Assembly (NCBI RefSeq): GCF_009745975.1
Contig: NZ_WHOL01000064.1
Location: forward strand, 1 to 64,000
Direction of reading: 5' to 3'
DNA length: 64,000 bases
Origin: Actinokineospora pegani
GTDB lineage: Bacteria; Actinomycetota; Actinomycetes; Mycobacteriales; Pseudonocardiaceae
A program made the position numbers and the translations under genes. Positions 6,301 to 11,404 of this stretch are shown here, in pieces (position 1 is the stretch's first letter; each line of letters opens with the position of its first letter). The notes under the pieces were generated by a model that saw only the letters and a list, made by a program, of their open reading frames with translations, had not been told where the DNA came from and ran no database searches.

Positions 6301-9300
6301 CGACCTTGGCGGGCGCGGCCGAGGAGGGCGCGGCCGGGTCGATGTCGGCCAGCAGCCGGTCGTCGACGACACCGGCGGTGTGCACGACGGCGCGCAGCGG
6401 CACGTCGGCGCGCGCCAGCTCCGCGACGAGCGCGGCGACCGCGGCCGGGTCGGTCACGTCGCAGCGGGCGAGGCTGACCCGCACCCCGGCGGCGGCCAGC
6501 TCCTCGGCCAGGGCGCGGGCGCCGTCGGCGTCCCCGCCCCGACGGGAGGCCAGCACCAGGTGCTCGGCCCCGCGCCCGGCCAGCAGCCGGGCGGTGTGCG
6601 CGGCCAGGGCGCCGGTGCCGCCGGTGATGAGCACGGTCCCGCGCGGCCGCCACGGGGTGGTGGTCGGCGCGGTCCGGCGAATCCTGCGCACCAGGCGGAC
6701 CCCGCCGCGCACGGCGGCGTCCTCGCCGTCGTCGGCGAGCAGCGCGGCGAGCTGGTCGGCGCCCGGGTCGGCGGGCAGGTCGAGCAGGCCCGCCCAGCGG
6801 CCGGGGTGCTCCAGGGCCACGACCTGGCCGATGCCCAGCAGGGCGGCCTGGGCCGGGTCGGGGGCGGGGTCGGTGGCGCCGCAGCGCGCGGCGCCGGTGG
6901 TCACCACGCGCACCGGGGCGTCCACACCGGACTCGGCGAGGTCGCGCAGCAGTCCGGCGACCGCGCCGGTGTACACCCCGGCGGCCGGGTCGGCGCCCGG
7001 GCCCGCGACGGCCAGCACCCCGACGACGTCCGGGCCGGGCGCGGTCACCACGTCCACACCGGACTCGCGCAGCAGCCCGGTGATCGGCGCGGTGTCGCCG
7101 CCGGGCAGGGCGACGACCAGCCTGCGGCCCGCCAGGGCGGTCGCCGGGGACGGGCGCCAGTGGACCTCGTGGGCGTGCCGGGCCACCGCGGCCCGGTCGG
7201 CCTGGCCCGCGCGCCAGCCCGCCAGGTGCGGCATCAGCTCGGCCAGCGTGCGCGGGGCGTCGGCGGGCAGGTCGAGCAGCGCGGCGACGCGGTCGACCGC
7301 ACCGGCGGCCACCGCGGACCACAGCTCGTCGTCGGCGCCGCCGGGCGCGGTGCGGGCCGCGCCGTCGAGCCAGTAGCGGGTGTGCTGGAAGCAGTAGGTG
7401 GGCAGGTCGACGCGGCGGGCGCCGGGCAGCAGCGCCGCCCAGTCGAGGGCGGCGCCCGCGCCGTGCAGGGCGCCGACGGCGGCGGCCAGGCCCGCGGCCT
7501 CGTCGCGGTCGGCGCGGACGCTGGCCACGACCGCGCGGCCCGCGGGCAGCGAGTCCGGGGCCAGGACGGCCAGCACGGCGGCCGGGCCGATCTCCAGGCA
7601 CGAGCCGACCTCGCCCAGGCCGGTGAGCGCGTCGGCGAAGCGGACCGCGTCGCGCACCTGGCGCACCCAGTAGCCCGGGTCGCGCAGCCCCCGCCCCTCG
7701 GGCAGGTCGGGGCCGAAGCGCTCGCCGGTGACCGACGAGACCAGCGGCACGCGGGGCGCGGCGATCGCGCAGGACGCGGCGACCTCGGCGAAGGCCCCGA
7801 GCGCGGAGTCCATGTGGTGGCTGTGGAAGGCGTGCGAGACGACCAGCCGCTTGACCCGCTTCCCGCGCGCCGAGAACACGGCGGCGACCGCGTCCACGGC
7901 GTCCGCGTCGCCGCTGACGACGCACTGGTCCGGGGCGTTGACCGCGGCGAGGGCCGCGCCGGGCACCAGCGCGGCGAGCACCTGCTCCTCGGTCGCGCGC
8001 ACCGAGGCCATCGCGCCGTCGGCGCGGCAGGCCTGCATCAGCGCGCCCCTGGCCACCACGAGCCGGGCGGCGTCGTCCAGCGACAGCGCGCCCGCGACGT
8101 GCGCGGCGGTCAGCTCGCCCACGGAGTGCCCGGTGACCACCTCCGGCCGCACGCCCCACGACGCCCACAGCCGGGAGAGGGCGACCTGGTGGGCGAACAG
8201 GGCGGGCTGGGCGAACTCGGTGCGGTGCACGTCCTCGCCCGCCGCGGCCTCGGCCAGCGGCACGGGCAGGTGGCGGTCGAGGGCGGCCAGGACCTCGTCG
8301 TGCGCGGCGCGGAAGACCGGGTGCGCGGCGCGCAGCCCGGCGCCCATGCCGGGGCGCTGGCTGCCCTGGCCGGTGAACAGGAACGCGGTGCCGCCGCGCG
8401 CGGGCGAGGTGGTGGCGGTCCCGGCGGCCAGCTCGCGCAGCGCGGCGACGGCCTCGGCGGGGTCGGCGGCGACCACGGCGGCGCGGTGGTCCAGCGCGGC
8501 GCGGGTGGTGGCGGCGGTGAACGCGACGTCGGCGACCGCGGGGGCGCCGGGGGTGTCCAGGGCGTCGGCGAGGCGGGCGGCGTTGGCGGCCAGGGCCTGC
8601 GGGGTCTTGCCGGACACGACGATCGGCACCGGGCCCGATCGGGTGGCGCCCGCACCGGCGACAGCGGACCAGTCCACGGGCGCGCCCGCGGTCCACAGCG
8701 CGCCGACGAGCTCTTCGAGCGCCCAGCGGGCCGGTCGGCCGCGCCCGCCGGTGGGCAGCACGGCCTCGACGCCGGGCAGTCCGGCCAGCGGCCGGGCGGC
8801 CACCGGGTGCGGCGAGACCTCGACGACGGTGACGGGGCCGTCGGCGGTCAGCGCGGCGACGGCCTCGGCGACCAGCATCGGGGAGGTGGTGTTGCGGGCC
8901 CAGTGCGCGCCGTCGACGGCCGCGCCCGGCAGGGCGGCGCCGGTCGCGGTGGACACGATCGGCACCTCGGCGGCGGCACCGCGCACGTCGGCCAGCGCGG
9001 TGGCGACCTCGGCGGCCAGCGCGCCCAGGTCCGGCCCGTGCGCGGCGTAGTCGATGCGCACCCGGCGGGCGGCGGTCCCGGCCTCGGCGAGCCGGGCCTC
9101 CGCGGCGGCGAGCGCGTCCAGCGGCCCGGCCAGGGCGGTGTGCCCGGCGCCCAGGTGGGCGGCCACGGCCAGGGCGGGGGCGTGCTCGGCGGCCCACTCA
9201 GCGGCCTGGGCGTGCCCCAGCTCCACGGCGGTGACGCCGCCGAGCCCGCCGACCCGCGCGGCCACGAGCGCCGACCAGGTGGTGATGACCCGCGCGCCCT

Positions 9301-11404
9301 CGGCGGTGGTGAGCGCGCCGGAGACGACGGCGGCGGCGACCTCGCCGATGCTCTGCCCCAGCACGACGTCCGGGGCGACGCCCCAGGAGCGCAGCAGCGC
9401 GGCGGTCGCCACGTGCACCGCGAACAGCACCGGCTGCACGACCTCGGCCCGGTCGAGCCGGTCGCCCGCGCCCAGCAGCTCGTCGAGCACCGACCAGCCG
9501 GTGTGCGCGGCGACCTCGTGGTCGACCTGGCGCAGGGCGGCGGCGAAGGCGGGCTCGGCGAGCAGGTCGACGGCCATGCCCGGCCACTGCGCGCCGTGCC
9601 CGGAGAAGAAGAAGGCGACCCGGTCCGCGGGCGCCGGGGTGTTCAGCGCCCCGGCCAGCGCGTCCGCCAGGTCGTCGGCGTGCTCCACGACGGCGAACGC
9701 GCGTGCCGGGCCGGAGCCGACGACGCGGACCGGGCCCGCGGCGAACGGGTCGTCCTCGGCGGCCAGCTCGGCCACCGCCGCGGCCAGCGCGGCGGTGTCG
9801 GCGGCGGCGACGGCGGCCAGCAGGCGGCGCGGCGCGGGCGGGGCGCAGAGCACGGCGTGCGCGTTGGCGCCGCCGAAGCCGAAGCCGCTCACACCGGTGA
9901 CGCGCTCGGCGTCGGGCCACGGCCGGGCCCCGGTCACCACCTCCAGGCGGTTGGCGGCGAAGTCGATGCGCGGGTTGGGGTCGGTGAAGTGCAGGGAGGC
10001 GGGCAGCTCGCCGTGGTGCACGGCCAGCGCCGCCTTGATCACGCCGGTGATCCCGGCGGCGGGCTCCAGGTGCCCGACGTTGGTCTTGGCCGAGCCCAGC
10101 AGCAGCGCCCGGTCGCGGCCGGGGGCGAAGACCTCGCCCAGCGCGTCGGCCTCGATCGGGTCCCCCAGCGGGGTCCCGGTGCCGTGGGCCTCCACGTAGG
10201 ACACCTGGTCCGGGCGCACCCCGGCGTCGCGCAGCGCCGCGCGCACCACGGCGACCTGGGCGGCGGGGTTGGGCGCGGTGATGCCGTTGGAGGCGCCGTC
10301 GCTGTTGACCGCGGTGCCGCGCACCACGGCGTAGACGCGGTCGCCGTCGCGCAGCGCGTCGGAGAGCCTGCGCACCACGACGACGCCGATGCCCTCGGCG
10401 CGCACGTAGCCCGACGCGTCCGCGGCGAACGCGCGGCAGCGGCCGTCGGCGCTCAGGCCGCCGAACTTGGTCATCGCCACGCTGGTGTGCGGGTGCAGCA
10501 GCAGGTTGACCCCGCCCGCGAGCGCCAGGTCGGACTCGCCCCGGCGCAGGCTCTGCACCGCCAGGTGCAGCGCGGTCAGCGACGAGCTGCACGCGGTGGC
10601 CACCGACAGCACCGGGCCGCGCAGGTCCAGCGCGTAGGCGACCCTGGCCGGGATGACCGAGGGGTCCCAGCCCACGGCGGAGTGCGACCCGATGGCCTCC
10701 GGGTCCGCGCCGGTGGCCAGGTGGTACTCCTGGGACATCGTGCCGAGGAAGACCCCGGTTCGGGTGCCCGAGAGCGACCGGGGCGCCAGCCCGGCGTCCT
10801 CCAGCGCGGCCCAGGTGACCTCCAGCGCGAGGCGCTGCTGCGGGTCCATGTGCCGGGCCTCGGCCGGGGACACGCCGAACAGGTCGGCGTCGAACCCGGC
10901 GACGTCGTCGAGGAAGCCGCCCGCGCGGGTGACCACCCGGCCGGGCGCGGCGGGGTCGGGGTCGGTCCAGGCGTCGGCGTCCCAGCGGTCGGCCGGGACC
11001 TCGCCGACGGCGTCGACCCCGGCGCGCAGCGCCGACCAGAACCCGGCGGGCCCCTCGATGCCGCCGGGCAACCGGCAGCCGATGCCGACGATGGCCACCG
11101 GCTCGCTCGGGTCGGTCGGACCGGCGGGCGCCTGCCCGTCGCCGCCGTGGGCGCCCTCGCCGCACAGCGCGGCGGCGAGGGCGTCCACGGTCGGGTACCG
11201 CCACGCGGCGGAGGCGGGCAGCGCCGTGCCGGTCCACCCGGCCACCCCGGCCAGCACCGAGGTCACCCCGGCCGAGTCGACCCCGAGCTCGCGCAGCGGC
11301 CGGTCGGTCGGCACGGCGTCGGGGGCCAGGCCGGTCAGCCCGGCCACGATCCGGCGCAGCTCGGCGCGCACCGCGGCCGGGTCGCGGTCCAGTGGTGTGC
11401 TCAT
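398..11404 (-). CDS. Bimodular type I PKS with N-terminal ACP and tandem AT domains
   Basis: 3668 residues. Order seen: ACP (Ser44 in LGVDS); KS (Cys272 in TACSSS, EAHGTGT, NVGH); AT-a (Ser685 in GQSIGE); a second KS-AT-type linker and AT-b (Ser1094 in GHSVGE, HAFH near 1190); KR (near 1588, VDD motif); ACP (DS near 1888); KS (Cys2121); AT-c (Ser2558 in GHSQGE, YASH); DH (HxxxGxxxxP near 2855, DxxxH near 3010); KR (near 3271, LDD motif); ACP (near 3576); short C-terminal docking tail. By known motif rules HAFH means malonyl-CoA, YASH means methylmalonyl-CoA, and the LDD-type KRs are B-type. AT-a has Trp where the carboxylate-binding Arg normally sits (ITTWSALVA), a feature reported for starter-loading ATs. 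The N-terminal ACP and AT-a suggest that a starter enters here. A GAGGATGAG ribosome site precedes the ATG. Confidence 0.95.

What the first reader, a model, noticed from the sequence alone, without database searches (positions are those of the whole stretch)
8050..9640. Two consecutive AT domains, the first with starter-type active site
Between one KS and one KR there are two complete ATs, each with its own upstream linker. The first has GQSIGE instead of GHSxGE and Trp where extender ATs keep the carboxylate-binding Arg; the second is a normal malonyl-type AT. The protein also begins with an extra ACP. Together this suggests a single protein that loads a monocarboxylic starter onto the N-terminal ACP and extends it with malonate, possibly created by loss of a KS between two modules. 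Tandem cis-ATs are rare.
Basis: partly seen in the sequence, partly recalled or inferred. Interest (0 to 1): 0.75.

Follow-up and report, generated by a model that had tools for sequence, protein, structure and literature searches.

The report
Polyketide synthase with split starter-loading module
A bacterial antibiotic-type assembly-line enzyme carries two neighbouring acyltransferases, most likely one for picking the first building block and one for the next; the arrangement is real but is a known design, long described in myxobacteria and also in at least one Streptomyces.

Summary
One minus-strand gene (window 398-11404, 3668 aa) reads ACP-KS-ATa-ATb-KR-ACP-KS-AT-DH-KR-ACP. AT-a has GQSIGE (Ser685) and Trp710 where extender ATs keep Arg; AT-b has GHSVGE, Arg1119 and HAFH (malonyl type). 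This is the soraphen/myxothiazol-type starter module, known from myxobacteria and published for one actinomycete (JomP1), so it is a new member of a known kind. It is no artefact: the two ATs share 35% of residues and the layout recurs in Micromonospora, Streptomyces, Amycolatopsis, Actinophytocola, Saccharopolyspora and Crossiella, with GQS[IV]GE in 17 of 17 and Trp in 16 of 17 (window included). At the Arg column 31 of 37 first-of-tandem ATs lack Arg, against 0 of 34 second and 0 of 73 other ATs. KS1s of tandem-AT proteins from Actinomycetota and Myxococcota form one clade, so a KS loss in this gene is not supported. Most likely AT-a loads a monocarboxylic acyl-CoA onto the N-terminal ACP, KS1 takes it, and AT-b supplies malonyl. 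No function was measured and the starter is unknown.

The parts
398..11404 (-). PKS gene, 3668 aa: ACP-KS-ATa-ATb-KR-ACP-KS-AT-DH-KR-ACP
   Evidence: single open frame, third-position GC 0.99; Pfam domains
11153..11380 (-). N-terminal (loading) ACP, phosphopantetheine Ser44 in LGVDSAG
   Evidence: PP-binding, 3 stretches in the protein; motif
9836..11110 (-). KS1, intact Cys272 (TACSSS), EAHGTGT, NVGH; not KSQ
   Evidence: Pfam, motifs
8765..9613 (-). AT-a, starter-type: GQSIGE Ser685, Trp710 at the Arg column, YAAH His789
   Evidence: Pfam PF00698 at 8792-9613; motifs; AlphaFold2 pLDDT 94.2; Trp column shared with avermectin loading AT 4rl1
8387..8764 (-). shortened post-AT segment of AT-a, then a canonical KS-AT linker preceding AT-b
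   Evidence: linker profile 79.1 bits; post-AT profile 30.6 bits, matched only to position 73 of 135
7550..8386 (-). AT-b, malonyl-type extender AT: GHSVGE Ser1094, Arg1119, HAFH
   Evidence: Pfam PF00698 at 7544-8383; motifs
6095..6649 (-). KR of module 1
   Evidence: Pfam KR, residues 1589-1767
5645..5890 (-). ACP of module 1 (LGFDSMM)
545..5560 (-). module 2: KS - AT (GHSQGE, YASH: methylmalonyl type) - DH - KR - ACP
1..339 (-). start of the next PKS gene (KS N-terminus), cut by the contig start
   Evidence: ketoacyl-synt 1.5e-22; contig C64 begins at window base 1
17869..27990 (-). PKS-NRPS of the same cluster: KS-AT(GSSQGE)-ACP-C-A-T-KS-AT-ACP-TE
   Evidence: Pfam, translation, start, homologous gene on the same contig as the tandem-AT gene in Micromonospora sp. 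C31, Streptomyces sp. WAC05374 and S. solincola
28035..33814 (-). methoxymalonyl-type extender genes: FkbH, acyl-CoA dehydrogenase, 3-hydroxyacyl-CoA dehydrogenase, AT-ACP-FkbM
   Evidence: TIGR01686 FkbH 272.5 bits; homologues in the three sister clusters

Best explanation
This is a split loading module fused to the first two extension modules of a cis-AT polyketide synthase. AT-a (Ser685/His789, Trp in place of the carboxylate-binding Arg) takes a monocarboxylic acyl-CoA and puts it on the N-terminal ACP. KS1 (Cys272) accepts that acyl group. AT-b loads malonyl on the ACP behind the KR. KS1 condenses the two and the KR reduces the ketone. Module 2 then adds a methylmalonate unit, which is reduced and dehydrated. 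Domain order, motifs and their conservation are shown; the substrate class (monocarboxylic) is inferred from the missing Arg; the order of transfers is inferred; the actual starter is not known. My guess is a common short or branched-chain acyl-CoA (acetyl, propionyl, isobutyryl, 2-methylbutyryl), because no gene for making a special starter was recognised among the window genes scanned (up to 42715); the cluster is cut at the contig start, so this guess is weak.
For: Domain order and motifs. Arg column: first-of-tandem ATs 31 of 37 without Arg (16 Trp, 12 Tyr, 2 Gln, 1 Leu), second ATs 0 of 34, other ATs 0 of 73, three further window ATs Arg, avermectin loading AT Trp. In a search with the avermectin loading AT, of the 30 loci L213-L242 only L215 has Trp, and that AT stands N-terminal in an AT-ACP-KS loading arrangement; the other 29 have Arg. 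GQS[IV]GE in 17 of 17 and Trp in 16 of 17 of the actinomycete clade (window + L085-L100). KS1 triad kept in 18 of 18 checked (window, L085-L100, L114). Confident AT fold, pLDDT 94.2. Same architecture assigned to starter loading in print (PMC10051162, PMC6117699, passages read).
Against: No biochemistry for this clade. The JomP1 authors propose that their AT1 loads the starter but that AT2 may be inactive, so the same layout need not mean two working ATs. L088 (Streptomyces solincola) has Leu instead of Trp. Six of 37 first-of-tandem ATs keep Arg (L002, L077, L080, L083, L160, L197). Foldseek does not single out loading ATs: extender ATs take ranks 1-5, the avermectin loading AT rank 6. GQS also occurs in ATs that keep Arg (L037, L038, L080, L002, L226), so GQS alone is no starter signature.
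Confidence: 0.85

Rival explanations
1. AT-a is a decayed relic and the N-terminal ACP is loaded by another AT (AT-b, or the AT of the separate AT-ACP-FkbM protein).
For: AT-a lacks the usual His of GHSxGE and the substrate Arg; in JomP1 one of the two ATs was judged possibly inactive; an extra AT-ACP protein is encoded in the cluster.
Against: Ser and His are kept in AT-a of the window and of all 16 named actinomycete relatives, and many other columns are invariant in an 8-row alignment; decay would hardly give the same Gln in 17 of 17 and the same Trp in 16 of 17.
Confidence: 0.07
2. AT-a handles the methoxymalonyl (or another ACP-bound) unit made by the FkbH-type genes of the cluster rather than a starter.
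For: The cluster encodes FkbH, acyl-CoA dehydrogenase, 3-hydroxyacyl-CoA dehydrogenase and an FkbM methyltransferase.
Against: A dicarboxylic extender would be expected to need the Arg that AT-a lacks; another AT with an odd motif (GSSQGE, Arg kept) in the PKS-NRPS is a better candidate and is present with the FkbH genes in the three sister clusters. Whether the more distant AT-a relatives lack FkbH genes was not tested.
Confidence: 0.05
3. The tandem AT is an assembly error or a very recent duplication.
For: High-GC draft assembly in 128 contigs.
Against: AT-a and AT-b are 35% identical in protein; the same order is seen in 13 of 16 named relatives, the other 3 being cut by contig ends.
Confidence: 0.005
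4. The arrangement arose in this gene by loss of a KS between two modules.
For: A canonical KS-AT linker stands before AT-b, as if a KS had preceded it, and AT-a has a recognisable linker of its own in several relatives.
Against: The layout is shared across two phyla with a common KS1 clade (37 of 37 KS1 together, with two stray KSs), so it did not arise here. Insertion of a linker-AT piece behind KS1 would leave the same trace: after AT-a the post-AT profile is matched only up to position 78 of 135 in 34 of 34 proteins, after AT-b to 89 or beyond in 32 of 34 (L090 and L094 end short).
Confidence: 0.1

Closest known systems
Soraphen/myxothiazol/myxalamid/chondramide/miuraenamide-type starter module ACP-KS-AT-AT-KR-ACP (myxobacteria)
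   Same: identical domain order; first AT assigned to the starter, second to the first extender (PMC10051162 passage; PMC6117699 passages); of 12 tandem loci fetched from the phylum of Myxococcus sp. RHSTA-1-4, 11 lack Arg in the first AT
   Different: window AT-a belongs to an actinomycete clade with GQS[IV]GE and Trp; those 12 first ATs have GYS or GHS with Tyr (10), Gln (1) or Arg (1). The named soraphen etc. sequences themselves were not in hand.
JomP1, jomthonic acid PKS of Streptomyces caniferus
   Same: ACP-KS-AT1-AT2-KR-ACP in an actinomycete (PMC6117699, passages read)
   Different: AT2 thought possibly inactive there; the window protein carries a second full module and a regular AT-b. 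JomP1 sequence not compared.
Avermectin loading module (AVES 1, PDB 4rl1)
   Same: loading AT with Trp at the same column; same fold
   Different: loading AT of the ordinary kind (AT-ACP ahead of KS1, recalled), GHSLGE; 41% identity to AT-a
Homologous PKS genes of Micromonospora sp. C31 (L085), Streptomyces sp. WAC05374 (L098), S. solincola (L088)
   Same: homologous gene and cluster, 53-65% identity in the PKS, with FkbH, P450 and PKS-NRPS on the same contig
   Different: S. solincola has Leu for Trp and no GH1/glycosyltransferase hit on its contig; the Micromonospora gene is cut by its contig end; products unknown to me

Membership tests
ACP-KS-AT-AT split loading module | extra ACP at the N-terminus with phosphopantetheine Ser | tested here: met
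   LGVDSAG, Ser44
ACP-KS-AT-AT split loading module | two ATs with no KS or ACP between them | tested here: met
ACP-KS-AT-AT split loading module | first KS is an active condensing KS, not KSQ | tested here: met
   TACSSS, EAHGTGT, NVGH motifs present; activity itself not measured
ACP-KS-AT-AT split loading module | first AT lacks the extender Arg, second keeps it | tested here: met
   Trp710 versus Arg1119
ACP-KS-AT-AT split loading module | KS1 groups with KS1 of other tandem-AT proteins | tested here: met
   one clade, 37 of 37 KS1 plus two strays, support 0.997/0.993 (midpoint-rooted FastTree); the KS behind one standard AT-ACP loader (L243) falls outside
ACP-KS-AT-AT split loading module | first AT shown to load the starter in vitro or in vivo | not testable with these tools
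   needs protein or mutants
standard AT-ACP loading didomain (avermectin type) | loading AT directly followed by its ACP, ahead of KS1 | tested here: not met
   ACP first, AT-a behind KS1
KSQ-AT-ACP loading module | Gln in place of KS active-site Cys | tested here: not met
   TACSSS in KS1 and KS2
trans-AT PKS | modules without built-in AT | tested here: not met
   every KS in the two complete window PKS proteins is followed by a cis AT

The most novel reading that the evidence does not exclude
The actinomycete proteins are a distinct, patchily distributed lineage of split loading modules (GQS[IV]GE plus Trp) that shares one ancient KS1 lineage with the myxobacterial ones, while AT-b has been exchanged between malonyl and methylmalonyl types: the starter machinery (ACP-KS1-ATa) is inherited as a unit with an exchangeable extender AT. 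A sister type (two proteins in the window's genus, one in another genus) has a first AT with Cys instead of Ser, which would be a natural cysteine acyltransferase.
Probability: 0.55. Interest if true: 0.5.

Novelty: new member of a known kind. Interest (0 to 1): 0.35.

Why it matters
It shows that a starter-loading design described mainly from myxobacteria also stands in 16 named actinomycete genomes of the collection scanned, gives a simple sequence rule (no Arg in the first of two ATs) for predicting starter loading, and points to an apparently exchangeable AT-b position that could guide engineering. The product of the cluster shared by four genomes is unknown to me.

Tried and rejected
Artefact or recent duplication: rejected. 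GQS as a starter signature by itself: rejected, because GQS also occurs with Arg (L037 of G284, L038 of G444, L080, L002, L226). G027 (39% full-length hit) as a close relative: rejected, it is KS-AT-AT-ACP with Arg in both ATs. Hits starting near residue 195 of the 800-aa query looked like possible tandems; one (L018) was read and is an ordinary KS-AT, the others were not read. The terminal RYW motif as a marker: my pattern found it between the two ATs in 0 of 34 proteins, but also behind AT-b in only 10 of 34, so I rest on the profile match ends instead. Identifying the natural product: not achieved. Paper searches: (10 of 10). The last, with GQS motif strings, 'ACP-KS-AT1-AT2', 'KS-AT-AT' and 'KS-ATa-ATb', listed 3 papers: the two cited and one on thraustochytrids (listing only). 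Only open-licence PMC papers are held.

Rows dropped or limited: of the 64 lower-scoring loci (L101-L164), 26 ordinary ones plus L114 and L160 went into the first trees; L187 was left out as near-identical to L186; AT pieces of 230 aa or less and KS pieces of 330 aa or less were left out, KS pieces under 380 aa. One second AT has Arg instead of His at the catalytic-His column of the alignment, not looked into. Two stray KSs (L096 fragment, L163) fell in the KS1 clade. Only the best-scoring loci were checked for layout, and those were picked for long query spans, so tandem counts there are lower bounds. In one search my AT-ACP-FkbM query was out of frame (14 stops); it was repeated in frame.
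Full report
What is there. The finding lies inside one gene on the minus strand, window 398-11404, 3668 aa, ATG start, third-position GC 0.99. Pfam gives three acyltransferase stretches, two KS, two KR, three carrier proteins and one dehydratase. In order: ACP (Ser44) - KS1 (Cys272) - AT-a (GQSIGE, Ser685; Trp710; YAAH, His789) - AT-b (GHSVGE, Ser1094; Arg1119; HAFH) - KR - ACP - KS2 - AT (GHSQGE, YASH) - DH - KR - ACP. The given span covers AT-a and the start of AT-b; AT-b continues to about 7550. The meanings of HAFH (malonyl) and YASH (methylmalonyl) follow passages in PMC7242659 and PMC7489565.

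Not an artefact. AT-a and AT-b share only 35% of residues. A search of 249 genomes of the window's own family with AT-a, followed by layout calls on 17 fetched regions plus two from the phylum search, found seven other genomes with ACP-KS-ATa-ATb in which AT-a has GQS[VI]GE and Trp (L068-L074, 48-56% identity). A scan of named genomes with the alignment of these eight (488 stretches, 393 relatives, best 80 kept) gave 16 loci, L085-L100, of the same AT-a type: one Micromonospora (63% over the matched part), eight Streptomyces, two Actinophytocola, two Amycolatopsis, one Saccharopolyspora and two Crossiella. The second AT is called in 13 of 16; in L086, L087 and L091 the contig ends 607, 525 and 146 bases behind AT-a, too soon for a call. 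GQS[IV]GE is in 17 of 17 with the window, Trp in 16 of 17 (Leu in L088). The KS1 triad is kept in 18 of 18 (with L114); a carrier motif of the form LGxDS was found by pattern upstream of KS1 in 12 of 18, L090 and L094 read LGLRS, and L088, L089, L091 and L114 gave no match to the pattern although a carrier domain was called by alignment in L088, L089 and L114. Against a claim of commonness: in an even draw of 396 genomes of the phylum (own included) only two other genomes passed E 1e-55 and neither is tandem.

The Arg column. I aligned 148 ATs. At the column of the extender Arg, the 37 first-of-tandem ATs (34 with both ATs seen, three cut by contig ends) have 16 Trp, 12 Tyr, 2 Gln, 1 Leu and 6 Arg; all 34 second ATs, all 73 other ATs and three further window ATs have Arg; the avermectin loading AT (4rl1, sequence) has Trp. 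The six with Arg are L002, L077, L080, L083, L160 and L197. As an outside check, a search with the avermectin loading AT returned 30 loci, of which one, L215/L243, has Trp, and that AT stands N-terminal in an AT-ACP-KS arrangement; the other 29 have Arg. That Trp, Tyr or Gln in place of Arg means a monocarboxylic substrate is my inference from these distributions and from the role of the Arg in binding the malonyl carboxylate (recalled).

Structure. AlphaFold2 on a 28-row alignment gives AT-a a mean pLDDT of 94.2 and pTM 0.93 (one row, L085, was entered twice). Foldseek's best solved structures are PKS ATs; the avermectin loading AT ranks 6th, extender ATs rank above it, so the fold does not tell the substrate.

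Age and origin. In midpoint-rooted KS trees (110 sequences; 109 with a control) all 37 KS1s of tandem-AT proteins, from Actinomycetota, Myxococcota and others, fall together (support 0.997 and 0.993) with two strays, apart from the remaining KSs. The KS behind a standard AT-ACP loader (L243) falls among the ordinary ones; this is one control only. In a draw of 146 genomes of the phylum of Myxococcus sp. RHSTA-1-4, 12 loci from 12 genomes, picked for a long match to the tandem query, were checked: all 12 are tandem ATs, 11 without Arg in the first AT; this is a lower bound. Among the 14 actinomycete AT-bs, six (window, L085, L088, L090, L094, L098) form a malonyl-type group and eight a methylmalonyl-like group by tree placement and GHSQGE, so I infer that AT-b has been exchanged while ACP-KS1-ATa stayed. 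The gap before AT-b holds a canonical KS-AT linker (47-113 bits in 34 of 34); the gap before AT-a does so weakly in some (up to 57 bits) and not detectably in the window (2.1 bits); the post-AT segment is cut short behind AT-a in 34 of 34. This fits either insertion of a linker-AT piece behind KS1 or an ancient KS loss; it does not fit a recent event in this gene.

Surroundings. The contig starts at window base 1 and cuts the next PKS gene. Behind the gene lie a GH1 glycosidase, a macrolide-type glycosyltransferase, a DinB-like ORF, a small ORF, a P450, an alpha/beta hydrolase, a PKS-NRPS ending in a thioesterase, FkbH, acyl-CoA dehydrogenase, 3-hydroxyacyl-CoA dehydrogenase, an AT-ACP-FkbM protein and an AfsR-type regulator, then LigA. 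Genes beyond about 42.7 kb were not scanned. Of 14 gene queries, 13 are matched on one contig of Micromonospora sp. C31 at 55-87% identity (the PKS only up to residue 2905, where that contig ends), 12 in Streptomyces sp. WAC05374 (45-75%, the AfsR-type regulator only partly and not counted) and 9 in S. solincola (50-72%); the ATP-grasp part is matched in none.

What is known. The passage read in PMC10051162 describes ACP-KS-AT-AT-KR-ACP in miuraenamide and names soraphen, myxothiazol, myxalamid and chondramide as precedents. The passages read in PMC6117699 describe the same pattern in JomP1 of Streptomyces caniferus, call it reported until then only in myxobacteria, and assign AT1 to the starter while doubting AT2. 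So the window protein is a new member of a known kind.

Noticed in passing
L075 (G006), L076 (G015), L079 (G542): ACP-KS-AT-AT-ACP proteins, two of them in the window's own genus, whose first AT reads GACFAE or GACFSE: Cys in place of the nucleophile Ser and Tyr at the Arg column; catalytic His kept. Possibly a natural cysteine acyltransferase.
   Followed up: partly
window 31442-35356 (-): One open frame holds an ATP-grasp/LAL_C2-like part (to about 33815) followed by AT (GYSLGE, HAFH), ACP and FkbM methyltransferase; a start at 33814 may separate them. The ATP-grasp part has no match in the three sister clusters.
   Followed up: partly
window 11471-13072 and 13220-14848 (-): GH1 glycosidase next to an OleI/MGT-like macrolide glycosyltransferase: looks like a sugar-on/sugar-off self-protection pair (the oleandomycin parallel is recalled). 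No hit on the S. solincola contig.
   Followed up: no
window about 22500-23530 (-): Adenylation domain of the PKS-NRPS: my hand reading of the specificity code suggests glycine; code and numbering recalled, not from a call.
   Followed up: no
L174 1462-6125, L182 14564-18674: In the two Streptomyces copies an AMP-ligase (67% identical between them) and a polyketide-cyclase-like gene stand near the cluster; they have no close match in the window or the Micromonospora stretches.
   Followed up: partly
own genome contig C32: KS pieces 73-76% identical to the cut PKS gene at window 1-339; C32 may hold the missing part of the cluster.
   Followed up: no
L077, L083, L080, L002, L160: Other KS-AT-AT proteins in which both ATs keep Arg (GSS, GQS or GHS motifs); role of the second AT unclear.
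   Followed up: partly
L114: Myxococcales MAG with tandem ATs, GQSIGE and Gln at the Arg column, sister to the actinomycete AT-a clade (support 0.998).
   Followed up: partly
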